Source: Halobacillus hunanensis
GTDB taxonomy: Bacteria > Bacillota > Bacilli > Bacillales > Halobacillaceae
DNA: 64,000 nt
Direction of reading: 5' to 3'
NCBI RefSeq assembly: GCF_900166655.1
Contig: NZ_FVZB01000006.1
Coordinates: 682,001 to 746,000 of the forward strand
Shown here: positions 18,109-32,794 of the stretch, in pieces
How the letters are laid out: each line of letters opens with the position of its first letter
How positions within the stretch are numbered: position 1 is the stretch's first letter
Notes under the pieces: generated by a model
The model's input: the letters and a program-made list of their open reading frames with translations, nothing else
Database searches by the model: none
What the model was told of the DNA's origin: nothing
Position numbers and translations under genes: made by a program

Positions 18109-18447
18109 TCATTCAAAATCTCTTGCTGTTAATAATTCTTTACCCATCCCCGTGAAAAGTGTTATTAGATAACCATTTGGATCTTTCAGTAAAAGTTCTC
18201 AAGCATTCCAAGGGCGGTCAATTGGTCCTTCTATAATCTCCCCATCAAATTTAAGTGCTTTATCTGAAAAAGAATTAATGTCTTTTACAGTTAGGTTAAT
18301 AACGACACCTTTCCCGTTGGTTTTCGTATCGCTTTGGTCTGTCACTAACATCAAATCTTGATATTTTTCACCCCGAATATGCGCTATTACAGTTTGCCCG
18401 TCTTCACCCGGAAAAGAAAGGGTAAGTAAAAAAATATACTCTTTCAC
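18109..18447 (-). pseudogene. VOC-family protein disrupted by an in-frame stop
   Basis: Glyoxalase-like remnant. The readable part has GEDGQTVIAHIRGEKYQDLM, GVVINLTVKDINSF and PIDRPWNA, then a TGA at 18199-18201 where relatives have Arg (CGA to TGA is one transition). The frame continues beyond it as ELLLKDPNGYLITLF to a second stop at 18109, the normal C-terminal strand. The N terminus also looks damaged: no FYxxxLGF segment in frame, although a neighbouring frame reads VLP...KSIFFY. At least two lesions, so decay rather than a single sequencing error. Confidence 0.65.
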
Positions 18448-18484: not shown

Positions 18485-18513
18485 GGCGCTTTCCTGTAAT
18501 CAAGGTAAGCGCC
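18485..18513. repeat. dispersed palindrome, copy 3 (divergent)
   Basis: GGCGCTTTCCT, 6 bases, AAGGTAAGCGCC: same palindromic core as at 13390 and 16408, with a different loop. It lies 38 bases 5' of the broken VOC gene. Confidence 0.65.
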
Positions 18514-18527
18514 GTCTACATATTTTT

Positions 18528-18586
18528 AGAAAGGCCCCTATTATTCGGGGTATAGTTCAGGCTACAATAATAGGGGCCTTTCTTTT
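18528..18586 (+). terminator. long hairpin with T-run (terminator or small-RNA end)
   Basis: 18-base perfect stem AGAAAGGCCCCTATTATT and its complement, 20-base loop, followed by TTTT on the plus strand. No plus-strand gene ends nearby (the ArsR gene ends at 18075), so it may end an unannotated transcript. Confidence 0.6.
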
Positions 18587-18757
18587 ATCTCGCATTATAA
18601 TGAAAAAATGAAAGTTCCGTTACGAACGATTTAAAGGTAACCTTAAAAATGTACTTTGTGCTTCTATCCTTTAACGAAAATTAAAAAGCTTTTGTACAAA
18701 CTGGCTTATCAAAAGTCACAAATAGTTTATTTATTTGATCAATAATCACGTCTGAAA
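18587..18757. other. intergenic region downstream of the papR-like gene
   Basis: 171 bases, AT-rich, no recognisable gene or terminator beyond the hairpin to its left. Confidence 0.4.
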
Positions 18758-18919
18758 TTAGTGTTTGAATGGAAGATCATCATATAGTGAAACATCTGAA
18801 TCTACCTCGTGAATCTTAAAAGCTGTGCTTACTTCAGAAATGTTGCTGTAGCTATTGTCTAATACACTAAAGGTTATTAAGGCTAATAGTAAGTTGAAGA
18901 ATATCAATAACTTTCTCAA
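18758..18919 (-). CDS. papR: PapR-like secreted signalling pre-peptide
   Basis: A 53-codon gene starting at TTG 18919, nine bases after AAAGGAG. The product begins MRKLLIFFNLLLALITFSVL, a short Sec-type signal segment, has a polar middle, and ends SLYDDLPFKH. Known PapR of the Bacillus cereus group is about 48 residues, starts MKKLLI and ends in heptapeptides of the type ADLPFEF or SDLPFEH, which are exported, trimmed, re-imported and bound by PlcR. Length, hydrophobic N terminus and the C-terminal xDLPFxH all match. It is divergent from a PlcR-like receptor gene, whereas B. cereus papR lies downstream of plcR. Predicted active form: the last 5-8 residues. Confidence 0.8.
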   Translation of the reverse strand: MRKLLIFFNLLLALITFSVLDNSYSNISEVSTAFKIHEVDSDVSLYDDLPFKH

Positions 18920-18985
18920 TCTACCCCACTCCTTTATTTGTTTTGATTTAAATTCTAATTTACCTAGTCAATATAGTTGATTTCT

Positions 18986-19011
18986 AAGTAAAAATATACC
19001 ATATTTTACTT
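18986..19011. promoter_or_regulatory. palindrome in the papR/plcR intergenic region
   Basis: AAGTAAAAATAT, 3 bases, ATATTTTACTT: an almost perfect inverted repeat between the divergent genes. Possible regulator-binding site; it does not match the published PlcR box. Confidence 0.4.
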
Positions 19012-19094
19012 GAGATGTTTCCAAATATTAAAATACTTATACTATAAAACGGGTACCTTAATGTGTGATTTTTATTGTGCACACATTATATATA

Positions 19095-19110
19095 TATGAG
19101 TAAATGCATT
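19095..19110. promoter_or_regulatory. PlcR-box-like sequence
   Basis: TATGAGTAAATGCATT compared with the PlcR box TATGNAN4TNCATA: it differs at the sixth and last positions. It lies 49 bases before the receptor ATG. A second, weaker candidate is TATGAAAATTTTCTAT at 19129-19144. Confidence 0.4.
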
Positions 19111-19158
19111 GTGGTAAAATATGTATCGTATGAAAATTTTCTATTTGAGGTGTTAAAA

Positions 19159-20067
19159 ATGGATCCTTATGTTGAACTATCTATTGGAAGTACTATTAAA
19201 GATTTAAGGCTTTATTTAGGTATCTCACAAAAGGAACTTTCCGATGGTATATGTACCCAATCTCTAATCAGTCAAATAGAAAGTGGAACTAATATTCCTA
19301 ATTCGATTTTATTAAGACAAGTGGCAGAGAAATTGGGGATTACATTAGATGGTTTATTGCTTATGTCTGAATACCCTAAATTTCCCCACTTCAAAAAAAT
19401 AGAATCCAAGTTGATAAAACTTGTTGAAACTAGTAATTATACTGAAGCATGGAAAATTATTGAATTAGAGAAAGGGAACACTTCTTTTGAAAGTGGAAAG
19501 GTCAAACAGTTTTTCTTATGGGCTGAAGGTGTATGTCAATATTATTTGAGTAATGATTTCACACTGGCAATGGATCTTTTGAAAGAAGCTTTAAATATAT
19601 CGGATAATCTTATCTTTTCATATCAGGATGTTAAAATCTTGAATAGTCAAGGCATTTTATATGCAGAAGAGAATTTATTAGAAGAGTCCATCGAAACTTT
19701 CAAATTGATTTTAGCTACCAAAGAAAAACTTTCACCTTATGTTTTATCCATTTCATCTCTATTTCCCAAAGTTTATTACAATTTGTCGAAGGTTTTAACT
19801 ATTCAAGGAAGCTATGAAGAGTCTATAAAATATTGTCAAGAAGGTATATATTATAGTGGAAATATGGAATCTATTTCGGACCTAGGTGAATTGTATTTCC
19901 AAATAGGACTAAATTTTGAGAAAATGCAAAAATATAATCAATCATTAAAATGGCTAATAAAGTCTCAAGACATTTTCAAACTAAAGGTTAGCAACTATGA
20001 GTTTTTGATGATAATTACAAATAAGATCCAAGAGGTAAGTTTATTGTTAGAAAAAGATACTAAGTAA
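19159..20067 (+). CDS. PlcR-like peptide-sensing transcriptional regulator (HTH + TPR)
   Basis: 302 residues. The N-terminal Xre-type helix-turn-helix IGSTIKDLRLYLGISQKELS / QSLISQIESG aligns well with PlcR (GSEIKKIRVLRGLTQKQLS, QSEVSRIESG). The rest is helical with tetratricopeptide-like repeats (SQGILYAEENLLEESIETFK, YNLSKVLTIQGSYEESIKY, LYFQIGLNFEKMQKYNQSL), the peptide-binding fold of the RRNPP family. The frame opens at 19075, but GAGGTG six bases before ATG 19159 fixes the start. It is divergent from the PapR-like gene. Expected role: activate target genes on binding the re-imported peptide; whether the lanthipeptide genes are targets is open. Confidence 0.85.
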   Translation: MDPYVELSIGSTIKDLRLYLGISQKELSDGICTQSLISQIESGTNIPNSILLRQVAEKLGITLDGLLLMSEYPKFPHFKKIESKLIKLVETSNYTEAWKIIELEKGNTSFESGKVKQFFLWAEGVCQYYLSNDFTLAMDLLKEALNISDNLIFSYQDVKILNSQGILYAEENLLEESIETFKLILATKEKLSPYVLSISSLFPKVYYNLSKVLTIQGSYEESIKYCQEGIYYSGNMESISDLGELYFQIGLNFEKMQKYNQSLKWLIKSQDIFKLKVSNYEFLMIITNKIQEVSLLLEKDTK

Positions 20068-20309
20068 CGGATTCGAATGAGGGTGATAATTCAAGAAAAG
20101 AAGGGTATTCATACCGTGTGACATTCCATGCAGCTTTCTGGCTCTACAATCTTTCTCAGAGAAGATCCGTGTCAAATTAATTTCGGTTATCTATTGTATC
20201 TTGCAAAGAAAAATTGCAAGATACAATAGCGTAGAATTTCACATTTACGAACGGCTTATAAGCTCTTATTGAAAACCTTCATTCAAAAAGTTATCAATAC
20301 CTCAGAGAA
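20068..20309. other. region between the plcR-like gene and the small membrane-protein gene
   Basis: No start-bearing gene found. It contains a 16-base perfect inverted repeat (20191-20229). Confidence 0.4.
20191..20229. repeat. 16-base inverted repeat between convergent units
   Basis: CTATTGTATCTTGCAA, 7 bases, TTGCAAGATACAATAG. No T-run on either side. It sits between the plcR-like gene and the end of the lan operon; a possible factor-independent stop of weak type or an mRNA 3'-end protector. Confidence 0.6.
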
Positions 20310-20480
20310 TTATCCCCTAGTGAAGTATTTGTATAGAAGAAGCGCGACGATTACTGAAACGAGACAACCAATGCCTCTAGATAACCAAATATTTATATTT
20401 ATATTCTCCATTATCCGGTTTACAAATGCACCAATGCTTGTAGATAAAAAAATTAGTAAAATCCATTTTATTGTTGACAC
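20310..20480 (-). CDS. 56-residue two-helix membrane protein at the end of the lan operon
   Basis: GTG start at 20480 behind a strong ribosome site (AGGAGGGAG, 6-7 bases upstream), 22 bases after the lanJ stop, so it is probably cotranscribed. The product starts MSTIKWILLIFLSTSIGAFV, then a short polar stretch NRIMENININIW, a second helix GIGCLVSVIVALLLYKYF and the basic end TRG. No recognised family. Small membrane proteins in lantibiotic loci often give self-immunity or help export; that role here is inference. The gene is below the usual 60-codon cut-off and easily missed. Confidence 0.7.
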   Translation of the reverse strand: MSTIKWILLIFLSTSIGAFVNRIMENININIWLSRGIGCLVSVIVALLLYKYFTRG

Positions 20481-20502
20481 GATGACTCCCTCCTATTAAA
20501 AG

Positions 20503-21615
20503 TTATTTTGAAAGAATTAGAACACATTTTCCAAATCGGGAGGAATCAAAAAAAGAGCGTTGTACAAAATCCACACCTTTTTCTAGTTCATATTCCTGAT
20601 CAATGATTATTCTCATACCCGTTCTATTTTGTAACTGAATTGCTCTTTCTAAATCTTCTCTTGACCCTAGGCAATTTCCCAAAATAGAAACATTCTTAAC
20701 AATACTCATTTCTAATGCTCCTCTGACCATAGGCTCCGCATCACTTGGAGTGTCATTGGACAATAATGGATGTTGATCTCGTACCCCACAAGTAACATAT
20801 GTCCCACCAGTTTGTAAGTAATGTAATGCATAGCCGATGTTCATATCGAAAAATGGGTCAAAAACATGTGTGATCTTCTGCTTGACTATATCATTTGACG
20901 CACTATTAATAGCATTACTTACTGATTCCACGCGGCTAGGATGTATTTTTTGTAGTTCTTCATCACTCCAATCTGACGTTGACAAACAAAGTGGAGTAAT
21001 GCCATGAGAGAGTAACTGTTGAATAATAAATAGTGATGTGTTTGACCGTGCACTTAATACTAACGGATTTCCACCATTAGCAAGTATTCCAGAGCGGCTT
21101 ATCATCCCTGACGCAGTTTGGGATCCCAACGAAAAACAAGCAGCTTCTCTATCACCTAGGCTTTTTGGTTTTTTTATTATCTTTTTCTTATGGAGACGCA
21201 ACCAACCCATCGATGCAAAATTTGTAGCTACACCGGGTAAAACTCCTTGCTTTCCGCTATCAGGGTATGAGCAATCAGACATCACACTATCCCCGACCTT
21301 AAATTCATGCACGTCCCTACCAACAGCAACAATATCTGCACTAAATTCTGAGCCAAATGGAACAAACAATCGGTCAGAACTCTTGATTGAATTGTAGTTT
21401 TCGATTAATAGGGCTTTATCACGGTAATTGCATGAAAAAGCTGTTACTCTTACTAATACATATTCACTATTTTTCGGATGTTCAGTGTCGAAAGTAGGTT
21501 GATCTAATTCAATCGTTCCAAACAGTATATCTTCTTGTCCAAACTTAACCGTTCCTAATTCTGTGTAATCCATTGAATCCTTCTTACTCGGATTAATTGC
21601 CACTAATGAGCGCAC
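20503..21615 (-). CDS. lanJ: LanJ-type MDR dehydrogenase (dehydroalanine to D-alanine reductase)
   Basis: 370-residue quinone-oxidoreductase-like MDR protein resembling LtnJ, which reduces dehydroalanine in lacticin 3147 peptides to D-alanine. The groES-like half includes AFSCNYRDKALL and FGSEFSADIVAVG, with VGDSVMSD following. The Rossmann half is degenerate around NPLVLSARSNTS rather than GxGxxG. GTG start after GGGAGG. It is the last modification gene, after lanM2, exactly as ltnJ is in the lacticin 3147 locus. The likely substrate is the dehydrated Ser at core position 7 of the alpha peptide. Confidence 0.78.
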   Translation of the reverse strand: MRSLVAINPSKKDSMDYTELGTVKFGQEDILFGTIELDQPTFDTEHPKNSEYVLVRVTAFSCNYRDKALLIENYNSIKSSDRLFVPFGSEFSADIVAVGRDVHEFKVGDSVMSDCSYPDSGKQGVLPGVATNFASMGWLRLHKKKIIKKPKSLGDREAACFSLGSQTASGMISRSGILANGGNPLVLSARSNTSLFIIQQLLSHGITPLCLSTSDWSDEELQKIHPSRVESVSNAINSASNDIVKQKITHVFDPFFDMNIGYALHYLQTGGTYVTCGVRDQHPLLSNDTPSDAEPMVRGALEMSIVKNVSILGNCLGSREDLERAIQLQNRTGMRIIIDQEYELEKGVDFVQRSFFDSSRFGKCVLILSK

Positions 21616-21968: not shown

Positions 21969-24782
21969 CTACTTTGATATCTCCTCAAATTCCTCCTTAC
22001 AGGAATGCTCCTTATATATATTATTTTGTTGATATGAAACAGAGCTTAGATTAAGTGGAAACCAAGCGGGGTCACCATTGTTATACATCTTTAACAGAAG
22101 AGCTGAATCAGCTACTCCACTCCAACCGAGGAAGTATCCCAAAAGGTAGTCTCTATTCTTCTCTCCAGTATAAAATCCATTATTATTAGCCAAATCTAAT
22201 ACAGTTTCCCAATACTGATTTGCAAGTGATAGATACCACGAATCTCCAAGAGCCTCATATGCAAACAGTAGAGATTGAAGTACCCCAGCAGCCCCATGAC
22301 ATATAGATAAATCTATAGGTCTATCTTTTGGCAGTGCTGTTGATTTCTTAGCTACTTCATATAGATCTAATTGTTCGTTTAATGCACTTGCCATTTCAGC
22401 TAGGACCATTAACAAACCAGCATTTCCATTACACCAACCTGCAGTATTAACAGTATTCGGAAAGGATATTTGTGAAGCCTTTTTAAAAAAACGCTTACAC
22501 CCTTCAATATCTTTTAAAGCAAAAGATAATCTAAATTGGGCCCAGATAACTCCTAAGTTCCCATGTGCTAATCCATCACTAGATAACATAGTTGAGGGAT
22601 TTTCAATGCAAATTTTAGATTCCAATTCTCTTAAAATCTGATTCGGTGTATCTGAAAATGATGCTAACGTGAGACCTATCCCTGTTGGGCCGATAAATAT
22701 ATCGCCACGCGGAGTTTCCTCTGATTGAAAATGCATTGCAATTTCTTCTATTCCTTTTACCCTATTCGAATTATGGTTAAATATGAAATCCAAAGAACTA
22801 TATCCTGATACTATCGATATTGGTGCAGATTCTAATTGTGAAGAAAATGCATGACGAAGAGATTTTAAACCTTTATTAGCCTGATTAAAAAGATTGATGT
22901 TCTCTGGAGAGGTGACTGTTTTTTCATACTCTGTCATGTGCTCCAAGAGAAAAAGGATGCCTCCGGTATCATGAAGCGAAATTAAAGCGGTAGAATCATA
23001 GGATATAGGTATATTTCCATATACCCCTCCAATCCATCCAGTTTGAGCATTATCTGTTTTGGTAGTAATTGATAAAGACCTTATTAATTCAATCAAAGGA
23101 TCGGGATTATCTTTTGTTACCTTTCGCAAAACATTTGAAAAGAGAGGAGATTGATAGCCCAAATCATCAGTTTTTTTATGATCTGCCTCATGTATTCTAA
23201 TATCAGAATATCCTTCTGCAATTAAGCGCTTATCATGTAATAATCTTTTTTGTGACAGCTCCTCTAACATTTTAATTGCATTATTTGCTGGTGACACATC
23301 AAATATCTCATTTGAAACAAAATCCATTGAGTATAAACGTTTATCATTTGCCTTTATGGAAAAGTGTGGGATATCTCCATTTTTTATAGAACGAATTTCT
23401 TCTTCCAACGTTTTCTTAGCTATTTCAGAATCCCTAATTAACCTAGGGGGTTTTAGATATTTTAGCACTTGATTAATTGAGGCATCGTCAACTAAATTCT
23501 CAGGAAATAGGCATGCATCAAGCATAAAGTAATACTGAACTGTAGGTCTAATAACTACTCTCATTAAACATTCAATATCAGTTAACTTAGAATAAATTTG
23601 CTCACGTTTATCCATCATCTTTTCATATCCATCTGAGTAACCATTTAGGAAATCTTCTTGAAATGGAAGTGGATCGGGTGCTTGATTATCAGTTAACGTT
23701 ATTGGTACAGTTGTCCGTTCAACAGTAATCTTTTCCTTAGCCAAATCTACAGCGTCTGTCCCTGGATTTTTCAATGTAAAGACCATTTCATTGGTTACTT
23801 GTGGATAGGGCGTATTGATTGCGCCAATTAACACTTCATGCGGAAGTGTCAATTGCTTAGCTGGAATTATTGACGTATTAGCAATTGAATGGGAAATCAT
23901 TTCCTCCATTGATTCGTGGAGGGAATGACTACGACCATATTTCGGTTGTAAACTGGTTTCTAAATCTACAACATAAGGAAATATCCCATTAAAAATAATA
24001 TTTTCATCATGTAAATCTGTTGCCCCCAAACAGCTAAACACCGCCGCACATAAACCTAGGTTATAATAAGCACTGCCAGTCTCTGACTGGCTTATGGGTG
24101 TATGCTGCACAAACTCTTGCCAACCATATTTACCTCGATTAACCGTTCGAGGAACTGGTGAATAGTTCTGTAGAGTATCAAATTTCAATGTGTCAGAAAA
24201 AAGCTCATCTATTAAAACATCAATCTCTAAAGACCGAGGCTTATATAGAATCTTCTTTGACGATTTAAATTCCAAGCAAAGGTTAACTTTTGAACCATTA
24301 TGAGGATCGGATTCAAGAGGTGTAATAGCTTGTAATTTTGATCCTCTACTAATTAAACCTTTTGATAAGAGTAAAGTGGCATCACGGCTGAAATTGTGGG
24401 ACACATCTTCAATGAAAGAACAAGTATTATTCACTGATTGTGTTACCATTTTTCGTAAAAAATCATATTTTGTAAACCAATTGCTTATGAGTTCCTTATC
24501 GATTAAGCTGACATATCGATCAAATATTTTTGATGATGAAGGATTAGCCGGATAAGATAAACTTTCTCGATATTTGTGAAGTTCATATACAAAAGTTTTA
24601 TGACATAGTCTCCACACGTGAAATTCCAATAATGTGTGTAAACAGTCCATAGATGCTATCTCAGCATGCGTTACAACATCTTGCCTAGATAAGTTTTCTT
24701 TTACCTTATAATTCGTCTTTTCTATTTCATCTGAAAAAAAACTCTCCACAGCATGGACTAGTCTCTCTGATACTAACTGCAT
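21969..24782 (-). CDS. lanM2: class II lanthipeptide synthetase LanM2
   Basis: Bifunctional dehydratase/cyclase, 937 residues. The N-terminal two thirds is the DUF4135 kinase-like dehydratase, with KILYKPRSLEIDVL, NRGKYGWQEFV and the catalytic-loop region GATDLHDENIIF. The C-terminal LanC-like domain has zinc ligands in WCNG (Cys784) and CHG (Cys828, His829). ATG 24782 overlaps the lanT end by 10 bases, indicating translational coupling. In the lacticin 3147 system LtnM2 modifies the beta peptide A2; the same pairing is likely here by position. Confidence 0.93.
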   Translation of the reverse strand: MQLVSERLVHAVESFFSDEIEKTNYKVKENLSRQDVVTHAEIASMDCLHTLLEFHVWRLCHKTFVYELHKYRESLSYPANPSSSKIFDRYVSLIDKELISNWFTKYDFLRKMVTQSVNNTCSFIEDVSHNFSRDATLLLSKGLISRGSKLQAITPLESDPHNGSKVNLCLEFKSSKKILYKPRSLEIDVLIDELFSDTLKFDTLQNYSPVPRTVNRGKYGWQEFVQHTPISQSETGSAYYNLGLCAAVFSCLGATDLHDENIIFNGIFPYVVDLETSLQPKYGRSHSLHESMEEMISHSIANTSIIPAKQLTLPHEVLIGAINTPYPQVTNEMVFTLKNPGTDAVDLAKEKITVERTTVPITLTDNQAPDPLPFQEDFLNGYSDGYEKMMDKREQIYSKLTDIECLMRVVIRPTVQYYFMLDACLFPENLVDDASINQVLKYLKPPRLIRDSEIAKKTLEEEIRSIKNGDIPHFSIKANDKRLYSMDFVSNEIFDVSPANNAIKMLEELSQKRLLHDKRLIAEGYSDIRIHEADHKKTDDLGYQSPLFSNVLRKVTKDNPDPLIELIRSLSITTKTDNAQTGWIGGVYGNIPISYDSTALISLHDTGGILFLLEHMTEYEKTVTSPENINLFNQANKGLKSLRHAFSSQLESAPISIVSGYSSLDFIFNHNSNRVKGIEEIAMHFQSEETPRGDIFIGPTGIGLTLASFSDTPNQILRELESKICIENPSTMLSSDGLAHGNLGVIWAQFRLSFALKDIEGCKRFFKKASQISFPNTVNTAGWCNGNAGLLMVLAEMASALNEQLDLYEVAKKSTALPKDRPIDLSICHGAAGVLQSLLFAYEALGDSWYLSLANQYWETVLDLANNNGFYTGEKNRDYLLGYFLGWSGVADSALLLKMYNNGDPAWFPLNLSSVSYQQNNIYKEHSCKEEFEEISK

Positions 24783-26944
24783 TGTAAACTCTCCTTTTCA
24801 AGCTCTGCACTAAACAATTCAGCATACAAGCCATCTTTATTAATTAATTCTTCATGAGATCCACTTTCTACAATGCATCCATTTTCAAGAACTACAATAC
24901 GATCAGCATTTAGAATAGTTGCAAACCGATGTGCTATAACAACTTTTGTACATTTAATATTTGATAATGCATTATAAACATTTGTTTGTGAAATATTATC
25001 AAGTGATGAAGTCGCTTCATCCATTATTAGTAATTTGGGTGTTTGAAGTAAAATTCTCGCTATATGAATACGTTGCCTTTGTCCTCCAGATAGGTTTGCT
25101 CCAGTTTCTGATATTACTGTGTTGTAACCCATAGGAAACTTGCCAATAAAATCTAAAAATCCTAATGAATCACAAAACTCTAGTATTTCTGATTCCGTAC
25201 GTTTACTGCCCAGCTTGAGGTTTTCCATTATAGTTCGATTGTGCAAGTGTGCTTCTTGAGGAATATAGCTAATTGAATCTCTTAATGTATCAAGATTATA
25301 GTCATGATACTCCATTCCTCCAAAATATATAGAACCACTAGTAGGCTTAAATAAACTACTTATTACCTTCCCAAGAGTAGTCTTCCCGGACCCAGATACC
25401 CCAACTAGAGCTATCGTTTCTCCATCAGAAATATCCAAATTAATATCTTTAACGGCCGGAATGTCATCGGAGGTATAACTAAAACTAAGATTTTTCATAG
25501 ATACTGATCCTGAATCCATTTCCCTTGAAGTTTCACGAGAGTGTTCTTTGGGATATTCAAATATATCCTCAGCTAAAACAATATATCGCACTGCCACCAT
25601 AATTTCAGATGCAGTTGTGAAAATTGAATTCATATAGACGAACAATAATGACACAATTGACTGAACCGCAATTGCTTGTCCAAGTGTCAAGAAACCTAAT
25701 TCTGCCATATATATACTAGTAACAAGAATAATTAAAGGAGCAAATACTTGTATTCCGGATAATATCGCTCCTATTATTCCTTGCTGGATACGCATTCTAT
25801 GGCTTGTTGCATTTAAGTATCTTTTGAATCGCTGCTTCCAGTCATTGATATAGGATTGGACATAGCCTCCTAGTTTCACGCTATTTATGGAAACCACAGC
25901 GTCTAACTGTATGCTCTGTGCATTAGTTCCCTCATGCAGTTCTTTATCCGTTGCAGAATTCACGTAAGACTGACCAATAACCAGAAAAACAAAGGTTGAT
26001 ACAATAAACAACAGTACCATTGTCCCAAGTATCGGTGATATCCAAAAAATATATCCTAATATGGCTACACTACTTATCAAATCAAGACATGCCTGTACTA
26101 GTGTCGTTCCTAAAACATCCTGTATTCGTGTAAGGGAGTTAAGCCGATAAATAATTTCACCAGGAGCCCTTACTGTAAAATACTTTGCTGCGAGCGATAA
26201 AACACGTGTAAAGGCCCCTCCCATAAGATGCCAACTAAAACGATAAATTATTTTTATGGAGAAGGAGGTCCTGAGAAAATTCAGTCCTATCATAATAACC
26301 ATTGCTATTATGAGAGACACAAGTATTGTAGCAAAGGAAGTGACATCGCCAAGCCCATTGTCAATTAACAGTTGTGTGAATATGGGGATCGCTAATGTCA
26401 TTCCAACTAACACAATGCTTAATAAAGCTATTTTTACATATAGATTTATCATATTAGATGGCCAAATATAGTCTTTTTTCCATCGAGAAAGGTTGTTAAC
26501 GCTACGGTTTTCGAAATCTGTTCCAGGTTTTGCAACTAGCACATACTCTTCAAGATTCTCTAAAAACTCTGAATGGGAGATTGATATCCTCCCTATTGAA
26601 GGGTCCATGATTATTACTTCATCTTCACTATACGACTCGATACAAACAAAGTGATACCCTTTCCAAAAGGCTATGATTGGAAAGTCCATTACTGTAAATG
26701 CCCTCGTGTCTTTTATTCGATAAGCTTTGGCATTCATTCCAAAATGAGAGAGCAACTCTTTTAGTTGTTGCAATCCTAAACCGTCTCTTCCAGGCTCTTT
26801 AACTTGTCTGAGTTCTGTAATTGAAGTTTGGTAATTATAAGCCTCCAGAATCGTTCTAACACAACATAGCCCACATTCTGATTGTGCTAATTGTAAAGTC
26901 GGAGTGAGTTTTCTTTTTTTCATTTTTTCAGAAAACATTTTCAT
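24773..26944 (-). CDS. lanT: bifunctional lanthipeptide transporter/leader peptidase LanT
   Basis: ABC exporter with an N-terminal C39 peptidase domain, about 723 residues. With numbering from the upstream TTG at 26956, the catalytic Cys28 is in QSECGLCC, His102 in KGYHFVC and Asp118 in MDPS. About six membrane helices follow, then the nucleotide-binding domain with Walker A GVSGSGKTT, signature LSGGQRQR, Walker B LLIMDEATSSLD and a switch His in VIAHRF. I prefer ATG 26944, just after the lanM1 stop, over the TTG. It cleaves the double-glycine-type leaders (GG of the beta peptide, GA of the alpha peptide) during export. Confidence 0.93.
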   Translation of the reverse strand: MKMFSEKMKKRKLTPTLQLAQSECGLCCVRTILEAYNYQTSITELRQVKEPGRDGLGLQQLKELLSHFGMNAKAYRIKDTRAFTVMDFPIIAFWKGYHFVCIESYSEDEVIIMDPSIGRISISHSEFLENLEEYVLVAKPGTDFENRSVNNLSRWKKDYIWPSNMINLYVKIALLSIVLVGMTLAIPIFTQLLIDNGLGDVTSFATILVSLIIAMVIMIGLNFLRTSFSIKIIYRFSWHLMGGAFTRVLSLAAKYFTVRAPGEIIYRLNSLTRIQDVLGTTLVQACLDLISSVAILGYIFWISPILGTMVLLFIVSTFVFLVIGQSYVNSATDKELHEGTNAQSIQLDAVVSINSVKLGGYVQSYINDWKQRFKRYLNATSHRMRIQQGIIGAILSGIQVFAPLIILVTSIYMAELGFLTLGQAIAVQSIVSLLFVYMNSIFTTASEIMVAVRYIVLAEDIFEYPKEHSRETSREMDSGSVSMKNLSFSYTSDDIPAVKDINLDISDGETIALVGVSGSGKTTLGKVISSLFKPTSGSIYFGGMEYHDYNLDTLRDSISYIPQEAHLHNRTIMENLKLGSKRTESEILEFCDSLGFLDFIGKFPMGYNTVISETGANLSGGQRQRIHIARILLQTPKLLIMDEATSSLDNISQTNVYNALSNIKCTKVVIAHRFATILNADRIVVLENGCIVESGSHEELINKDGLYAELFSAELEKESLQCS

Positions 26945-26945
26945 G

Positions 26946-29879
26946 TTAATTACCAAACGTTAATGGGGAAGTTTTAATAGTAGGGTCAAGAGATTTGCAA
27001 AGGTGCAATAGTGCACCAGCTTTACCCGCCATCAATCCTGGGCTTAAAGGATATCGGCCCTTCCCATTTTTATAGTAGTTAAAAATATATTCTGGAGAGC
27101 AGAAAGTTGTTTTCATCTCTAGGAGGATTTCAGATGTCTCTTCTGGAAATGATTCACTCACGTACTCAAGCGCCTCTACTATTCCCAAACTTCCATGACA
27201 AAGTACCGGAACACGCGATATAGGTATTCTTCTTAGCTGATCTATTAAATTTAGAACAGATTCTTTAGGTAAAATGTTTGATTTGTATGCTTCGTAATAG
27301 GCTATTAATAGTCCTGATAAACCATTACACCAAGATGATGATACATTCATACCTTCGCCATCTTTATATATCTCTATGATTCCATCATTGTTTGTGTACT
27401 TATTACAGATGATCGAATCAATATCCTCAACTATTCGTTTTATTTCGCTGTTTTCTTGTTTTTGATTGACCAAAGCAAAAAACCAAAGTAATTGACCATA
27501 TCCATGAGTCAATCCTGAAGTAGTTTGAGTATCACTTGCATTTATTTTTGAATATGCCAATGAAAGACTTCTTTTGATAATATCATTACTTAATTTGAAA
27601 TCTTTTTGCGTTCGGTATCTCATAACAATCGAACTACTTTTGCCCGTAATCATGTCGAAAAAATCATTATCTGGTGTATCCAGAGAATGGTGCAATATTG
27701 GCCACGAATTAACAGCTATGTCTTTCCATTTTTCGTTTCCAACGAAATCCCCTGCCGCAAATAATGTCCACAGTAGACCTGAAACTCCAGAAAATCCACC
27801 AATTCCAGAAAGAAGGACATTTCTAAGTTCGAAACTTTTTTCTTCTAGAATGTTTGATGATTTTTCAAAAATATCATTGGAAGCTTTGATTGCATCATCG
27901 TCTGATACCAGTTTACCGGCCACTGCTAACGCGAGTGCTGGGCCAACTCTTCCGTTATATAAATCGTACCCTAAAACTCCTGGTGTCCAGCCCTGCCCCC
28001 CAAATCGTGCAACAGGTCCAATCCAAGTCTTTGGTAAATGTTCATAGCGATCATCCAAAAGTGATTCAGTTATTGATTTGGAAAACCAAGAAATGATTTC
28101 TTTGTGATTTTTATTGTTGTAATCTTTTACTGTGTTCAGCTTTTTAAATTTAGTTATTTCTTTCTCTATAGATTCTGACTCTTCTAGTTTTAGCTTTCCA
28201 TCTGCATGTGGATCTGCTAACTTAGCAACAAAAGCTAGTCGTATTAGGTTGGTTTGTCTAATCAAGTCATCTTTTGTGAGATTTTCCATCTTTGAAATAA
28301 ATTGTGATTCCGGACTTGTTGGAATATGAGAAATAACTTCATTTCCAGAAAAAACTTCTGTCCCTTTGAAGTTGAGGGAAAAATACGGGATGTCCCCGTT
28401 CCAGAGTTGTCTGCATTCAGATAAAACCAAATTGGTATCACTTGTTAGACTCAGTATTCCAGTACGAGACAATAAAGCATGTGCCGTTTCTATATCTCTG
28501 GATGGTTCTGCATCAGATAAGATACGTAAGATTTGTTCATACCTGTATGTCATATTATGTATATAACGAAAATTAACATTACTAAATGACTTTCTAACTG
28601 CGTCAATAAACAGATTCTTTTGTTGGTATACTTGCATGAAAAATTCAGAGAAACCTTCAATAATTTGGTCACATCTTTCATGGATAAAAGACTCCAAATC
28701 TGGGTCATTCGATAGAGTATTATCGATACTTTGATGCTTCCAGACAACTTTTATGTTTGAAGAAAAACCATTTTGTATATCGAAAATCTTAAAAGGACTT
28801 ACACTGTTTTCGTTTCGAATACCAGTGAACCCGACATCAACTGAACCATTCCCTGTTTTTGTACCTAATGATATTGGGAGTACACCTGTACCATATACTG
28901 ATTTCTCCAATGCATGATAAGCGCTTCTTTTTGATTCAGGAATTCCAGTTCTAATCCGAGGTGGATGGAATAGAGTTTCCAAATCTATTGGAAGCGGCCC
29001 CTCATTTGTCCACAGTATGTTGCTGTAATGCATATCTGTAGCATTTAACATAAACATTAGACATGCTAGTCTGCCTGCTTGGAACATATCAGTCTTTTCT
29101 TCATTAGTTTCTACAAACGTTGTAAAACCATAATTACCAAAATCAATAACAGTCAGGGAAGGCATCTTTGGAGATATAAATTTGTTAATCTCTCGAATGA
29201 AGTTTGTATATCCTAATTCTCCAGATACTGAACGCGGTTTGAAAACAATCTTTTCTCCATGTTCAAAAGTAATAATCGCTACAGAAGTCCCATTGTTATG
29301 TGTGTCTCCCCCTGACTGTACAGAAGCAATACGACTAGTGCACGGAATTTTGAGTTCTTCCTCAATTCTTACACGATGTTTTTCAGTCAACTGAATAGCA
29401 TCTTTAATTGCATTTGCTCTGTTCTCTAATAGATTATTGCACCTACCCCATGCAATTGCGTAAATATCCGCAAATTCTTTGAACTGTGTAGCCATTAATC
29501 TTTGAGTGTAGTAATCATAAATTTCTTTCGAATTCATAGACTGCTCAGATAATGTTTTGATCTGTTCAGCGAAACACCTTATTAAGTACGAGAAAGCTAT
29601 CTGTGAGAACAGCTCACAGATAGCATTTTTGAATGATTCAGGTTCCAGAAGATGCTTGTCCAAATTCGAGTCCCATACTTTCTCCAAGGCATTTCTAGCA
29701 ATCATCCTACAAGGGTTATGATAGGGGTATAATTCCTGGGCCTTGAAAGCATCTACATTATTCAAATTATCTTCAGAGTGCACAGACAATTCATCAATAT
29801 AATATAGAAGTGGTGCAATATGTTCATCGAAATCTGACTGTTCAAGTTCTGGATAAAACTGTTTCTTGTAGGTAATCAT
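26946..29879 (-). CDS. lanM1: class II lanthipeptide synthetase LanM1
   Basis: 977-residue LanM. The dehydratase domain shows KIVFKPRSVSGELGY, SLTVIDFGNYGFTTFVE and NATDMHYSNILWTNEGPLPI. The cyclase domain carries WCNG (Cys851) and CHG (Cys894, His895) as zinc ligands. It starts 18 bases after the beta-peptide gene and its stop codon touches lanT, so the three genes are tightly coupled. By analogy with LtnM1 it should process the alpha peptide. It is only a distant paralogue of LanM2, as usual for two-peptide systems. Confidence 0.93.
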   Translation of the reverse strand: MITYKKQFYPELEQSDFDEHIAPLLYYIDELSVHSEDNLNNVDAFKAQELYPYHNPCRMIARNALEKVWDSNLDKHLLEPESFKNAICELFSQIAFSYLIRCFAEQIKTLSEQSMNSKEIYDYYTQRLMATQFKEFADIYAIAWGRCNNLLENRANAIKDAIQLTEKHRVRIEEELKIPCTSRIASVQSGGDTHNNGTSVAIITFEHGEKIVFKPRSVSGELGYTNFIREINKFISPKMPSLTVIDFGNYGFTTFVETNEEKTDMFQAGRLACLMFMLNATDMHYSNILWTNEGPLPIDLETLFHPPRIRTGIPESKRSAYHALEKSVYGTGVLPISLGTKTGNGSVDVGFTGIRNENSVSPFKIFDIQNGFSSNIKVVWKHQSIDNTLSNDPDLESFIHERCDQIIEGFSEFFMQVYQQKNLFIDAVRKSFSNVNFRYIHNMTYRYEQILRILSDAEPSRDIETAHALLSRTGILSLTSDTNLVLSECRQLWNGDIPYFSLNFKGTEVFSGNEVISHIPTSPESQFISKMENLTKDDLIRQTNLIRLAFVAKLADPHADGKLKLEESESIEKEITKFKKLNTVKDYNNKNHKEIISWFSKSITESLLDDRYEHLPKTWIGPVARFGGQGWTPGVLGYDLYNGRVGPALALAVAGKLVSDDDAIKASNDIFEKSSNILEEKSFELRNVLLSGIGGFSGVSGLLWTLFAAGDFVGNEKWKDIAVNSWPILHHSLDTPDNDFFDMITGKSSSIVMRYRTQKDFKLSNDIIKRSLSLAYSKINASDTQTTSGLTHGYGQLLWFFALVNQKQENSEIKRIVEDIDSIICNKYTNNDGIIEIYKDGEGMNVSSSWCNGLSGLLIAYYEAYKSNILPKESVLNLIDQLRRIPISRVPVLCHGSLGIVEALEYVSESFPEETSEILLEMKTTFCSPEYIFNYYKNGKGRYPLSPGLMAGKAGALLHLCKSLDPTIKTSPLTFGN

Positions 29880-29897
29880 AAAATTTCTACCCCCCCT

Positions 29898-30095
29898 TTA
29901 ACAAGCGCGTGTACAAGCAGTAGTTGGACAAGTGTTAGTTGAAATATATCCCGTAACTACCGTAATAACGATAGTTGGTGTTGCCCCTCCAGCAACTTCA
30001 TCATCAGTTAATGCGATCATATCTGATTCCAGATATTTTCCCAGTTCTAATTCATTTTCCGTACTATTACGATTATTAGATTTATTATTATTCAT
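29898..30095 (-). CDS. lanA2: lanthipeptide precursor, beta type (LtnA2-like)
   Basis: 65-residue precursor. ATG 30095 follows AAAGGAGATATCGCT. The leader contains ELELGKYLESDMIALTDDEV and ends at AGG. The core after GG is ATPTIVITVVTGYISTNTC followed by PTTACTRAC, nearly the same C-terminal half as lacticin 3147 A2 (AYISTNTCPTTKCTRAC). Three C-terminal Cys and the matching Ser/Thr allow the three conserved rings. The N-terminal half is Thr-rich and has no Ser, unlike LtnA2, so D-Ala positions of LtnA2 are missing. Confidence 0.92.
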   Translation of the reverse strand: MNNNKSNNRNSTENELELGKYLESDMIALTDDEVAGGATPTIVITVVTGYISTNTCPTTACTRAC

Positions 30096-30131
30096 AGCGA
30101 TATCTCCTTTTCCCATATAAGTATTTCTAAA

Positions 30132-30329
30132 TTATTTACACCATGACATGCATTCATGAGAAGCTGTACACCAACTCCCATCATTGCCCCAGTAATCACT
30201 AAGAGAAAATGTATTTGTAGTGCAGGCTCCAAATACGTCATCATCAAATTGTTGATCTACAACCTCTTCAAACCAAGTAACTTGTTCATTCTGACTCTCT
30301 TTTTTCAATTTACTGATTTCGTTTTTCAT
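30132..30329 (-). CDS. lanA1: lanthipeptide precursor, alpha type (LtnA1-like)
   Basis: 65-residue precursor; ATG after AAAGGAGGG. The leader ends VTWFEEVVDQQFDDDVFGA, almost the LtnA1 leader, with cleavage after GA. The core is CTTNTFSLSDYWGNDG followed by SWCTASHECMSWCK, closely matching lacticin 3147 A1, including Ser7 (site of D-Ala in LtnA1) and the mersacidin-like C-terminal ring motif CTxxxEC that binds lipid II. First gene of the biosynthetic operon, downstream of a promoter with an extended -10. Confidence 0.93.
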   Translation of the reverse strand: MKNEISKLKKESQNEQVTWFEEVVDQQFDDDVFGACTTNTFSLSDYWGNDGSWCTASHECMSWCK

Positions 30330-30378
30330 ATTATCCCTCCTTTCTGGAAAATTCCAAAAATTAAGAGCTCTCTAGTAA

Positions 30379-30407
30379 TTTTTACCATGGGAAATATACC
30401 CCGTCAA
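30379..30407 (-). promoter_or_regulatory. promoter of the lan biosynthetic operon
   Basis: Minus-strand TTGACG (30402-30407), 17-base spacer ending in TGG, then TAAAAA (30379-30384): an extended -10 arrangement, 50 bases before lanA1. Confidence 0.6.
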
Positions 30408-30446
30408 CGAGATTCCTGAATTATTAAAATACTTATATTGCAAATT

Positions 30447-30495: not shown

Positions 30496-30509
30496 AGAGG
30501 TGAGGATTT

Positions 30510-30749
30510 ATGAAGAAAGATTTTGGCGATTCCATATCAAATAATGTTTATGAATATCGAGTGCTTGCCAAGATGTCTCAGTTAGAGTTGGCAAAAAAAA
30601 TCGGTGTTTCTAAGCAAACAATTTTTGTAATGGAAAAAGGAAATTATGTGCCTTCGTTACGACTAGCGTTTCGTATTGCCGATTTCTTTGAAGTTGATGT
30701 GAACGATATTTTTACTTATGTGAAAGGAAATGATCCAAATGACGTTTGA
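30510..30749 (+). CDS. lanR: Xre-type regulator of immunity genes (LtnR-like)
   Basis: 79-residue Cro/CI-type DNA-binding protein: YEYRVLAKMSQLELAKKIGV, SKQTIFVMEKG and PSLRLAFRIADFFEVDVND are the typical helix-turn-helix and capping helices. It has the size and position of LtnR, which represses the RIFE immunity operon of lacticin 3147. ATG after AGAGGTGAGG. It overlaps the next gene. Confidence 0.88.
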   Translation: MKKDFGDSISNNVYEYRVLAKMSQLELAKKIGVSKQTIFVMEKGNYVPSLRLAFRIADFFEVDVNDIFTYVKGNDPNDV

Positions 30750-31092
30750 ATCTATGCCCGTAATATCAAATTCAATCTTTTATCCTTTGAAAATTTGGGC
30801 GGAAAAATCAAATGATAATTGGAATATGCTTATTGTTAGCGGTTTTATATTGCTTTTAGTCGGAGGGGTCTTGATACTCGTATATCGGAACAAAATGGGT
30901 AAATCAGACGAAAGAACAAGTCACATATATTTGAAAAGTGCCTTCGTAATGTTAGGTGGAGTCGTTCTGTGCGACTTAATTTTTCCGAAAGGATACATGT
31001 GGCAAATTTTCTTTTTATTTAAATATTCTCTGGCATTCTTCGCATCTGGAATATATCTAGCTGTTCAATACAAAAGGGATTTTTTAAACTAA
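30739..31092 (+). CDS. lanI: membrane protein, probable lantibiotic immunity protein (LtnI-like)
   Basis: About 117 residues with three hydrophobic segments (NMLIVSGFILLLVGGVLILV; SAFVMLGGVVLCDLIF; IFFLFKYSLAFFASGIYLAV). ATG 30739 (MTFESMPV) has the better spacing from AAAGG than ATG 30730. The position between the R-like regulator and an ABC pair matches LtnI, a dedicated immunity protein. Sequence alone does not prove immunity. Confidence 0.7.
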   Translation: MTFESMPVISNSIFYPLKIWAEKSNDNWNMLIVSGFILLLVGGVLILVYRNKMGKSDERTSHIYLKSAFVMLGGVVLCDLIFPKGYMWQIFFLFKYSLAFFASGIYLAVQYKRDFLN

Positions 31093-31116
31093 TGGAATAA
31101 ACAGGGGGATTGGAAA

Positions 31117-31986
31117 ATGCTTATCAACTCAATTACTAAGAAATATAGTGGCTCTGTAGTTTTAAATGAGCTATCTTTTGATTTCAAACCAGGAGAAATT
31201 GTCGGTTTAATTGGAAATAATGGCGCAGGAAAAAGTACGCTTATGAAGATAATTGCTCAAACGATTCAGAAATTCGATGGATCTGTTGAAGACAACAGTC
31301 ATGTCGGATACTTGATTGAGGAACCTAAACTATTTAGTAATAAGACTGGATTAGCGCATTTATCCTATTTCTCGAAAATTTATGGAAACATATTCAAACT
31401 TAATGAATACGAGGAACTTCTAAAATGCCTGCAATTGTTTGATGTATTGAATAAAAAAGTGAAGGAATACTCTTTGGGAATGAAGCAGAAATTAGGAATA
31501 GTTATAAGTCTATTGAACAATCCGAGTTACGTCGTATTAGATGAGCCAACAAACGGTATGGATATTGAAACATCCCTCGAAGTATTAGAGCAATTGAAAA
31601 AAATGGCTAAAGAGTGGAATGTCGGTATATTGATTTCCAGCCATAAGCTAGAAGACATTGAGAACGTCTGTAATCGCGTCTTGTTTATAGAAAAAGGGAA
31701 CATCCTTGATGAACAGCAATTTAGTAACAAGAGCCAGCACATACTAAAATTAGTTTTTGATACTCCTACTGAATTAGCAACATTTATCAATCATCAAGAG
31801 TTCGGAAGTATCGTTCATTCAAGTGAAAAAACAGTTGAAATTGAAACGACGGCAAATAATGCTGATGTTTTCCAATTTTTAAATAAATTAGGTATAAGAT
31901 TAATTGATTTTACTACTGAAAAGAAAACGCTTCGTAATGTGTATATGAGCAAACTCGGAGGTGAAAAACGTGATATTGGATATTAA
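31117..31986 (+). CDS. lanF: ABC transporter ATPase, immunity type (LtnF-like)
   Basis: 289-residue ATPase with Walker A GNNGAGKST, signature YSLGMKQKLG, Walker B YVVLDEPTNGMD and a switch His in ISSHKLED. It has the LanF E-loop-type feature (GYLIEEPKLF, with Glu where most ABC proteins have Gln), characteristic of lantibiotic immunity ATPases. ATG after AGGGGGATTGG. It overlaps the permease gene, with which it would expel the peptides from the producer membrane. Confidence 0.9.
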   Translation: MLINSITKKYSGSVVLNELSFDFKPGEIVGLIGNNGAGKSTLMKIIAQTIQKFDGSVEDNSHVGYLIEEPKLFSNKTGLAHLSYFSKIYGNIFKLNEYEELLKCLQLFDVLNKKVKEYSLGMKQKLGIVISLLNNPSYVVLDEPTNGMDIETSLEVLEQLKKMAKEWNVGILISSHKLEDIENVCNRVLFIEKGNILDEQQFSNKSQHILKLVFDTPTELATFINHQEFGSIVHSSEKTVEIETTANNADVFQFLNKLGIRLIDFTTEKKTLRNVYMSKLGGEKRDIGY

Positions 31987-32695
31987 AAGTTACGTTAGTT
32001 ACAACTTAAGTGAGCTATTTAAGAGGGGATCTTTGATTGTGGGAGTATTGGCAGCCTTAGGACCAGCAATACTCATTAGTTACCTTATCTTATCAGGAAC
32101 TACAGCTTTTACGATTAAACATGTTTCAAACTTTTATTGTATGTTAGGAATGCTCGCTGCTGTATTACACCCTCTTTACTTTGTCAACAGAGATTATTCA
32201 TCTAAGACAATATCATTGATTAACAATTCAAAACAAAACAGAAAAAAATATGTACTAGCCAATGTTGTAATTGCTCTATGTGTCAGTTTAATTTATGCAG
32301 CATTAGGAATTGTTTTACTTCTAGTTACAAAAGAACTTGGAGTTCCTGGAGAGTTGAAAGCTTCCTTCCTTCTGGGATTTTCAGTTAACGTCTTTCTTCT
32401 AGTGCTAACTTTTTTCTTGTTTGGATATATCTTACTACTTTATGGTGTCCGAAGTGGTGCAGTTTATGGAATTTTGACAGCGTTACTACTTTTCTTTCAT
32501 AATATTTTGATAAATGTGTTGGAAAGTACAAATAACGTATTTCTTTCAAACATAATTGAAAATTTTCCTGGTTATTTCTATCCAGTTATGGTTGGATCAA
32601 ACCCACTTTCTCCTATGCAGTACTTTATTGGATGCCTCACCTTAGTCGTACTTCTTGTACTCGTCCTTAAAAAAAGCGAAAGAATTGAAATATAA
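31970..32695 (+). CDS. lanE: ABC permease, immunity type (LtnE-like)
   Basis: About 241 residues with six hydrophobic helices and NPLSPMQYFIG near the C terminus. GGAGGTGA lies five bases before GTG 31970, which I prefer over GTG 31961. It overlaps lanF by 17 bases and is the last gene of the R-I-F-E operon, closed by a terminator at 32795. Partner of LanF in self-protection. Confidence 0.85.
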   Translation: MILDIKSYVSYNLSELFKRGSLIVGVLAALGPAILISYLILSGTTAFTIKHVSNFYCMLGMLAAVLHPLYFVNRDYSSKTISLINNSKQNRKKYVLANVVIALCVSLIYAALGIVLLLVTKELGVPGELKASFLLGFSVNVFLLVLTFFLFGYILLLYGVRSGAVYGILTALLLFFHNILINVLESTNNVFLSNIIENFPGYFYPVMVGSNPLSPMQYFIGCLTLVVLLVLVLKKSERIEI

Positions 32696-32794
32696 TAATA
32701 AGATTGCATTGTAGAGTTTTAAAAGAGCCAAGACTGGCCCCTTTTCTGAAAGCTAAGCTACTTTAAATAGATTTTCAATTTCTCCCCATGATAA

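What the first reader, a model, noticed from the sequence alone, without database searches (positions are those of the whole stretch)
18758..20067. A PapR/PlcR-type quorum-sensing pair outside the Bacillus cereus group pattern
Seen directly: a 53-codon minus-strand gene with a strong ribosome site encodes a peptide with a hydrophobic N terminus (MRKLLIFF) ending YDDLPFKH. It is divergent from a 302-residue regulator with an Xre helix-turn-helix and TPR-like repeats. Established: B. cereus PapR has the same size and C-terminal heptapeptides such as ADLPFEF and SDLPFEH, bound by PlcR. Here the genes are divergent and the peptide has Lys-His in place of Glu-Phe/Glu-His, suggesting a distinct pherotype. 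The peptide gene falls below usual gene-calling size.
Basis: partly seen in the sequence, partly recalled or inferred. Interest (0 to 1): 0.92.

Follow-up and report, generated by a model that had tools for sequence, protein, structure and literature searches.

The report
Pheromone switch on a lantibiotic cassette
A small secreted-peptide gene and its receptor gene, related to the PapR/PlcR signalling pair of Bacillus cereus, travel together with a lacticin-3147-type antibiotic gene cluster and probably switch that antibiotic on when enough producer cells are present.

Summary
In detail: a 53-codon TTG-start peptide gene (18758-18919, minus) ending DDLPFKH, divergent from a 302-residue HTH/TPR regulator (19159-20067, plus). 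The PlcR/PapR reading is supported: PlcR is the best solved relative by sequence and fold, and a divergent peptide gene ending LPFKH or LPFRH stands beside 4 of 4 close receptor orthologues. Two points need changing. Divergent order and LPxxH tails are common among PlcR-like pairs of other Bacilli, and the pair is not a genus trait (1 of 11 genomes). In the block a 16-bp palindrome pattern occurs at exactly two places: between the pair, and 14-15 nt upstream of the conserved -35 of the lantibiotic promoter. The lacticin 3147 plasmid has the same cluster without pair or palindrome. Two lysines that hold PapR's glutamate in PlcR are Glu and Ser here, where the peptide has lysine. Peptide binding, DNA binding and the sign of control are inferred. 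New variant of a known kind.

The parts
18758..18919 (-). pheromone precursor gene (papR-like), 53 aa, TTG start
   Evidence: tail conserved in 4 of 4 close orthologous loci
18761..18781 (-). codons of the candidate mature heptapeptide DDLPFKH
   Evidence: length of the mature peptide inferred from PapR7
19026..19041 (.). 16-bp imperfect palindrome TATTAAAATACTTATA, candidate operator 1 (between peptide and receptor genes)
   Evidence: same place in G297, G356, G771
19159..20067 (+). PlcR-like receptor/regulator, 302 aa, HTH + TPR (RNPP_C)
20310..20480 (-). small membrane protein, 56 aa, conserved in the three cassette relatives; function unknown
20503..21615 (-). LanJA-type dehydrogenase (candidate maker of D-Ala from dehydroalanine)
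   Evidence: 48.9% to the dehydrogenase of the lacticin 3147 cluster on pMRC01
21969..24782 (-). lanthipeptide synthetase LanM, second
   Evidence: TIGR03897 over cut-off; 40.2% to pMRC01
24773..26956 (-). LanT, C39 peptidase ABC exporter
26946..29879 (-). lanthipeptide synthetase LanM, first
   Evidence: TIGR03897 over cut-off; 44.5% to lacticin 3147 LanM
29898..30116 (-). LanA2 (beta) precursor, core ...YISTNTCPTTACTRAC (true start may be a downstream ATG)
   Evidence: NF038161 68.7 bits, cut-off 26; 66% to LtnA2
30132..30329 (-). LanA1 (alpha) precursor, core CTTNTFSLSDYWGNDGSWCTASHECMSWCK
   Evidence: NF000539 37.8 bits, cut-off 29; 72% to the pMRC01 alpha precursor
30402..30407 (-). -35 hexamer TTGACG of the lanA promoter; TTGAC kept in all 4 cassettes
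30422..30437 (.). 16-bp imperfect palindrome TATTAAAATACTTATA, candidate operator 2 (upstream of the lanA promoter)
30510..30749 (+). small Xre regulator, LtnR-like by position
   Evidence: 65% to the pMRC01 HTH regulator at the same place
30730..31092 (+). LtnI-like immunity protein candidate
   Evidence: 42% to the pMRC01 hypothetical protein at the same place
31117..31986 (+). immunity ABC ATPase (LtnF-like)
   Evidence: 35% to pMRC01
31961..32695 (+). immunity ABC permease (LtnE-like by position only)
   Evidence: no match to pMRC01 at E 1e-3

Best explanation
A PlcR/PapR-type quorum-sensing pair that serves as the dedicated switch of a transferable lacticin-3147-type lantibiotic cassette. 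The 53-aa precursor is exported, its C terminus (about DDLPFKH) is released outside and taken back in by an oligopeptide permease, binds the TPR pocket of the 302-aa receptor, and the loaded receptor binds the 16-bp palindrome TATWARNATNYTWATA. From the site upstream of the lanA promoter it activates lanA1-A2-M-T-M-J, and from the site between the pair it raises the peptide gene (positive feedback). Shown by sequence: both genes and their co-conservation, the predicted PlcR fold, the cassette, the two identical palindromes and their fixed place relative to the lanA promoter, and the receptor changes that match the peptide's lysine. Inferred: export, trimming, import, peptide binding, DNA binding, and that the effect is activation.
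For: Receptor: PlcR is the best match in solved structures by sequence (E 2e-23) and by predicted fold (top 5 Foldseek hits are PlcR chains, model pLDDT 86). Pair: peptide gene divergent in 4 of 4 close orthologues, tails LPFKH/LPFRH. Cassette: same gene order in G297, G356, G771; window DNA similarity to them runs from the pair to the end of the immunity genes and, apart from one 86-bp match at 62.3 kb with G356, stops there. Operator: the best direct repeat in 18500-33000 (26 nt, 85%; another of 26 nt has 77%) is the stretch holding the palindrome, in the pair's and lanA's intergenic regions; the pattern occurs exactly twice in the 64-kb window and twice in each of three 33-kb relatives, always at these two places, and at five places in 3.98 Mb of the genome (reversed control pattern two). 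It ends 14-15 nt upstream of an invariant TTGAC in all 4 lanA promoters, centre near -57 if the spacer is 17, the place of an upstream-bound activator, before a weak -10. pMRC01 lacticin 3147: same gene order, no receptor match, no pattern match in 24,934 bases, and, by eye, TTGACA-17-TAAAAT. Held-out test: 4 of 49 other PlcR-like loci have the pattern within 500 nt (0.13 expected, at most 2 in 200 shuffles), all upstream of the receptor and all with Leu in the recognition helix as here (4 of 12 with Leu, 0 of 37 without). Charge swap: PlcR K87/K89 (ionic contacts to PapR's Glu, PMC6568020 passages) are E90/S92 here and E/N or V/N in the orthologues, while 35 of 49 other receptors are Lys/Arg at both. 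The genome has 7 oligopeptide-binding-protein matches.
Against: The palindrome pattern was written down after looking at the eight sites, so one search is not a clean p-value. Genome-wide it is not specific: a tighter form occurs in 274 of 397 genomes of the order, at numbers like those of the reversed control. The four held-out loci are at most three lineages (two have the same site), and their sites begin only 28-47 nt before the receptor start codon, not about 130 nt as here. A looser test (any 16-bp TAT...ATA palindrome) found 5 of 53 loci upstream but also 3 of 53 downstream. The classical PlcR box is not enriched in the window: 44 hits at 2 mismatches, 43.5 expected. G114 has the pair without any lantibiotic gene, and its one site lies 100 nt 3' of the receptor gene with no obvious target. 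The charge-swap rule fails in L031 (candidate peptide with Arg, receptor Arg/Arg) and L071 (Arg, His/Arg), and the five LPF[KR]H receptors are one clade, so it may be one event. The papR-side promoter elements are not conserved in spacing. PlcR sits on a very long branch (2.8), so orthology to PlcR is not shown. The related TprA of pneumococcus represses (PMC5436883 passages).
Confidence: 0.75

Rival explanations
1. Same parts, opposite sign: the receptor represses lanA and the peptide relieves it, as described for TprA/PhrA of pneumococcus, a PlcR-family regulator with downstream lantibiotic genes; the related TprA2/PhrA2 has its peptide gene on the opposite strand beside LanM-type genes.
For: Described precedent (PMC5436883, passages seen).
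Against: The palindrome lies upstream of the -35 of a promoter with a weak -10 at fixed spacing in 4 of 4 cassettes, a usual place for an activator; the signal tail and fold are PlcR-like, and PlcR activates.
Confidence: 0.15
2. The pair is a real quorum-sensing system that only hitch-hikes with the lantibiotic cluster and regulates itself or genes elsewhere.
For: G114 has the pair with no lantibiotic genes in 28 kb. One further intergenic site lies elsewhere in the genome, upstream of a PatB-like gene.
Against: The palindrome in the lanA promoter region of all 4 cassettes, and its absence from the pair-less lacticin 3147 cluster.
Confidence: 0.06
3. The shared palindrome is the operator of the small Xre regulator (LtnR-like), not of the PlcR-like receptor.
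For: The Xre gene starts 72 nt from the lanA palindrome.
Against: pMRC01 has a 65% identical Xre but no palindrome; the palindrome also sits between peptide and receptor genes, and upstream of 4 other PlcR-like receptors. A different conserved repeat, AAGTTYACTTTAC, lies next to the Xre start (by eye).
Confidence: 0.03
4. The peptide ORF is a chance ORF or another small secreted peptide and the receptor does not bind it.
For: No peptide family in Pfam or NCBIfam; no binding test.
Against: Conserved tail in 4 of 4 orthologues; 37 of 63 receptor loci against 0 of 93 control pieces.
Confidence: 0.01

Closest known systems
PlcR/PapR of the Bacillus cereus group (RRNPP family)
   Same: HTH+TPR receptor with the PlcR fold (predicted); small precursor with signal-like N terminus and C-terminal DLPFxx; 16-bp TAT...ATA palindrome as (candidate) operator.
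   Different: Peptide gene divergent instead of downstream (PapR position recalled); Lys-His for Glu-Phe; receptor K87/K89 replaced by E/S; palindrome has T or A for the G4 that B. cereus PlcR needs (G4 to A leaves 1% activity, PMC2464732 passages); neighbour is a lantibiotic cluster, not a scattered regulon.
TprA/PhrA and TprA2/PhrA2 of Streptococcus pneumoniae
   Same: PlcR-family regulator and peptide next to LanM-type lanthipeptide or lantibiotic genes; phrA2 on the strand opposite to tprA2 (PMC5436883 passages).
   Different: Peptides LDVGKAD / VDLGLAD without LPxx; TprA represses; no sequence or palindrome comparison made here.
Lacticin 3147 cluster of pMRC01
   Same: Gene order A1-A2-M-T-M-J with divergent R-I-F-E; precursors 66-72% identical.
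   Different: No PlcR/PapR pair and no palindrome; by eye a near-consensus promoter.
RRNPP-linked biosynthetic clusters listed by Bernard et al. 2023 (PMC10075063)
   Same: 196 clusters predicted to be under an adjacent RRNPP pair, 25 of them in Bacillaceae (passages).
   Different: The words Halobacillus and lanthipeptide do not occur in its main text; its table S5 was not read, so the Priestia koreensis copy may be in it.
Rodencin cluster of Bacillus subtilis EH5
   Same: Two-component class II lanthipeptide, two LanM, LanJA dehydrogenase, lacticin-3147-like cores (PMC11519912, abstract and section 4).
   Different: No PlcR-like pair is mentioned in what I read; its sequence was not examined.

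Membership tests
PlcR/PapR-type RRNPP pair | N-terminal HTH plus RNPP-type TPR domain | tested here: met
   HTH_3 and RNPP_C over cut-off
PlcR/PapR-type RRNPP pair | closer to PlcR than to other RRNPP receptors of known structure | tested here: met
   PlcR 86.5 bits, next RRNPP receptor (5w4m, Rgg2) 19.8; top 5 folds PlcR, other RRNPP receptors (ComR, Rgg2, PrgX) lower
PlcR/PapR-type RRNPP pair | orthology to B. cereus PlcR (same clade) | tested here: inconclusive
   own clade at 100/99 support; PlcR on a branch of 2.8 changes per column
PlcR/PapR-type RRNPP pair | adjacent small precursor with signal-like N terminus and LPxx C terminus | tested here: met
   signal judged by hydrophobicity only
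PlcR/PapR-type RRNPP pair | peptide-backbone asparagines N159 and N201 of PlcR | tested here: met
   N at both in all 5 members of the clade; their role is recalled, with N205 of the PlcRa model in PMC3519770 passages as support
PlcR/PapR-type RRNPP pair | classical PlcR box TATGNAN4TNCATA | tested here: not met
   no exact match in the window, no enrichment at 2 mismatches; a variant 16-bp palindrome instead
PlcR/PapR-type RRNPP pair | peptide-dependent DNA binding and activation | not testable with these tools
   needs experiment
Lacticin-3147-type two-component lantibiotic cluster | two precursors, two LanM, LanT, LanJA and divergent R-I-F-E in the same order | tested here: met
   the permease by position only
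Lacticin-3147-type two-component lantibiotic cluster | lipid II motif CTxT/SxEC in the alpha core | tested here: met
   CTASHEC; motif from PMC11519912 section 4
Lacticin-3147-type two-component lantibiotic cluster | antibacterial activity and D-Ala in the product | not testable with these tools
   needs experiment
TprA/PhrA-type repressor pair | repression of the lantibiotic genes in the absence of peptide | not testable with these tools
   operator place argues for activation

The most novel reading that the evidence does not exclude
A lacticin-3147-type antibiotic cluster has acquired its own complete quorum switch and moves between bacterial families as one block: signal, receptor and a private operator evolved together (charge-swapped peptide pocket, T or A for G at the key operator base), so that the cassette is insulated from the host's and neighbours' other PlcR-like circuits and is produced only by a quorum of carriers. 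As far as my searches show, it would be the first two-component, D-alanine-type lantibiotic under a PlcR/PapR-type pheromone.
Probability: 0.5. Interest if true: 0.66.

Novelty: new variant of a known kind. Interest (0 to 1): 0.55.

Why it matters
It gives a silent-cluster problem a direct key: a 7-residue synthetic peptide is predicted to turn on a lacticin-3147-type lantibiotic in environmental Bacilli. It also offers a compact case of a signal, its receptor pocket and its DNA site changing together, which bears on how new quorum-sensing 'languages' arise and on why antibiotic cassettes carry their own.

Tried and rejected
Classical PlcR box as the operator: not enriched. A general TAT...ATA palindrome test over the family: upstream 5 of 53 but downstream control 3 of 53, so not used as support. 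Genome-wide counts of the tighter pattern over 397 genomes: like the reversed control, so not used as support. Promoter scan of the pair's intergenic region: 4 promoter-like sites against 2.7 expected, uninformative. Other copies of the receptor in the genome: none at E 1e-3 among 18 scored candidates. Viral contigs and phages: two weak HTH-only loci and four distant hits, not followed. Plasmid search for the receptor: 30 records, all under 60% identity. PADLOC: one hit, an HTH model. Idea that divergence marks this pair as unusual: dropped. Idea of a genus-wide system: dropped. Simple charge rule for all peptides: has exceptions.

Rows dropped before counts: near-identical receptors (90% identity or more) were collapsed, 63 to 53, or 58 outside the clade to 49; would also skip a locus with N or a short flank while still counting it in the 53. 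In one search three co-directional ORFs and one downstream ORF were left out as peptide candidates by my judgement. In some searches only up to 5 first-look candidates a genome were scored, and the two samples overlap.

Full report
What is there. The peptide gene runs from 18919 to 18758 on the minus strand: 53 codons, TTG start after ATAAAGGAGTGGGGTAGA, basic and hydrophobic N terminus, C terminus YDDLPFKH. Divergent from it, 239 nt between the starts, a 302-residue protein is encoded at 19159-20067. Pfam finds HTH_3 and RNPP_C, both over their cut-offs. Among solved structures PlcR is by far the best match (E 2e-23; no gap in the first hundred aligned residues). An AlphaFold2 model from an alignment of 32 sequences (mean pLDDT 86) has PlcR chains as its five best Foldseek matches; ComR, Rgg2, PrgX, a Listeria regulator and other TPR proteins follow.

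Is the pair real. Only 1 of 11 genomes of the genus, this one, has the receptor and there is no close orthologue among the other 43 genomes of the family (5 have 27-31% matches). Searches of 397 genomes of the order and 398 of the class (overlapping samples, up to 5 candidates scored a genome) gave four close orthologues: G297 77%, G356 76%, G771 70%, G114 50%. All four have a divergent small ORF with a ribosome site, a hydrophobic start and a tail ELPFKH, ELPFKH, EELPFRH or EDLPFKH, with synonymous codon differences within the tail. The five receptors form one clade with 100/99 support.

How unusual is the layout. Around 63 PlcR-like receptor loci (this one included) I sought signal-like small ORFs with a proline-containing tail. 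49 of 63 loci have one; of the 51 ORFs found, 33 are upstream and divergent, 11 downstream and opposite, 7 co-directional. The same loose scan hits 2 of 93 control pieces and 1-4 of 63 loci with shuffled flanks; with the stricter tail [DERT][LIF]PxxH at the very end, written after seeing the tails, it is 37 of 63 against 0 of 93 and 0 of 63 in each of 10 shuffles. A 2025 Halobacillus paper names plcR and papR among quorum-sensing genes (PMC12167742, passages).

The target that was missed. The genes that follow are a complete class II two-component lantibiotic cluster: minus strand LanA1, LanA2, LanM, LanT, LanM, dehydrogenase; plus strand Xre, a small membrane protein, ABC ATPase and permease. 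The order is that of lacticin 3147 on pMRC01, with 35-72% identity in the proteins that match; the permease and the 56-aa membrane protein gave no match at E 1e-3. DNA similarity with the window begins inside the peptide gene (in G771 just before the receptor gene) and ends with the permease; the only other match in the 64 kb is 86 bp at 62.3 kb with G356. The block has 34.9% G+C against 38.7% and 45.1% on its sides. It is therefore best read as a cassette that moved between families (three relatives, two families). G114 has the pair alone in 28 kb.

The operator. A direct-repeat search of 18500-33000 gave as its best pair 19023-19048 and 30419-30444 (26 nt, 85%; one other pair of 26 nt has 77%): one in the pair's intergenic region, one in front of lanA1. 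Its core is an imperfect 16-bp palindrome, TATTAAAATACTTATA, identical in both. Aligning the same regions of the three relatives gave the pattern TATNARNATNYTNATA. It occurs twice in the window (0.04 expected from shuffles, but the pattern was made from these sites), twice in each relative at the same two places, once in G114 100 nt beyond the receptor gene, not in 24,934 bases of pMRC01, and at five places in the whole genome (reversed control two): two are these, one is another intergenic place, two are inside genes. A tighter form is found in 274 of 397 genomes of the order at numbers like the reversed control, so sequence alone is not specific genome-wide. In 49 other receptor loci, not used to make the pattern, 4 have it within 500 nt (0.13 expected, at most 2 in 200 shuffles), all upstream of the receptor; these are at most three lineages, and their sites begin 28-47 nt before the receptor start codon, nearer than the 133 nt here. 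Those 4 are among the 12 receptors with Leu at the recognition-helix position of PlcR Glu33, as here; 0 of 37 others have it (Fisher p 0.002, not corrected for kinship; with one mismatch 7 of 12 against 4 of 37). A looser palindrome test did not discriminate. The B. cereus PlcR box has the same length and ends, TATGNAN4TNCATA, but needs G at position 4, where A leaves 1% activity (PMC2464732, passages); at the cassette sites that base is T or A.

Sign of control. In all four lanA promoters the palindrome ends 14-15 nt upstream of an invariant TTGAC, followed at 17-18 nt by a weak -10; its centre is near -57 if the spacer is 17. pMRC01, without the pair, has TTGACA-17-TAAAAT (read by eye). Both facts fit activation. 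The pneumococcal relative TprA represses (PMC5436883, passages), so the sign stays inferred.

The pherotype. PlcR holds the glutamate of PapR with Lys87/Lys89, Gln237 and Tyr275 (PMC6568020, passages). Here the aligned residues are Glu90, Ser92, Glu244 and Phe; the orthologues have Glu/Asn, Glu/Asn, Glu/Asn and Val/Asn at the first two. Outside the clade 35 of 49 receptors are Lys/Arg at both, 9 have one basic residue and 5 none. The peptide has Lys or Arg where PapR has Glu. This is what a charge swap predicts. Glu at 237 is the usual residue of the family and proves nothing. L032, with Arg in its candidate peptide, has Val/Cys and fits; L031 and L071, also with Arg, keep Arg/Arg and His/Arg and do not.

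Import and processing. The genome has 7 matches to the oligopeptide-binding protein family and 3 to M4 peptidases, so the usual route is available; which ones act is unknown.

Comparison with print. I found no description of a PlcR/PapR-type pair on a lacticin-3147-type cluster in searches (listings only, open-licence library). Bernard et al. 2023 predict 196 biosynthetic clusters under an adjacent RRNPP pair (PMC10075063, passages); its table S5 could not be read and may hold the P. koreensis copy. Verdict: new variant of a known kind, a pheromone-receptor pair with its own peptide code and candidate operator, fixed to a transferable lantibiotic cassette.

Noticed in passing
G000 C6:417159-418901 and C1:1061365-1063345 (outside the window): Two M4 metalloprotease matches each lie within about 1.4 kb of an HTH_3 match in an open frame of about 445 aa, as nprR-nprA pairs would; perhaps further RNPP systems in this genome.
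   Followed up: no
L079:4227-4242 (G114), about 100 nt 3' of the receptor gene: G114 has the LPFKH pair without a lantibiotic cluster; its single palindrome lies downstream of the receptor, about 550 nt before a pyrophosphatase-like gene (by eye), so its target is open.
   Followed up: partly
G330 C10:93338-93924: Four copies of TATAAGRATATTAATA about 190 bp apart in an unrelated genome; might mark repeated pheromone genes or targets.
   Followed up: no
G245 C116:120257 and 121358; G069 C5:6522 and 7624: The palindrome flanks other PlcR-like receptor genes on both sides.
   Followed up: no
window 20310-20480 (-): 56-aa membrane protein conserved in the three cassette relatives, with no Pfam match and no counterpart found on pMRC01; possible extra immunity factor.
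   Followed up: partly
window 30451-30484: Direct repeats AAGTTYACTTTAC before the Xre/immunity operon, seen in similar form in the other cassettes and in pMRC01; possibly the Xre operator (by eye).
   Followed up: no
G000 C1:33207-33222: A third intergenic palindrome TATAAGGATATTAATA, about 150 nt upstream of a PatB-like gene (by eye); possible further target or chance.
   Followed up: partly
window 18199-18447 (-): Short ORF that looks like a remnant of a glyoxalase-type protein just outside the cassette border (by eye).
   Followed up: no
window 42542-46506: DnaB-like helicase, DnaD-like and sigma-like ORFs that look like a phage replication block (by eye).
   Followed up: no
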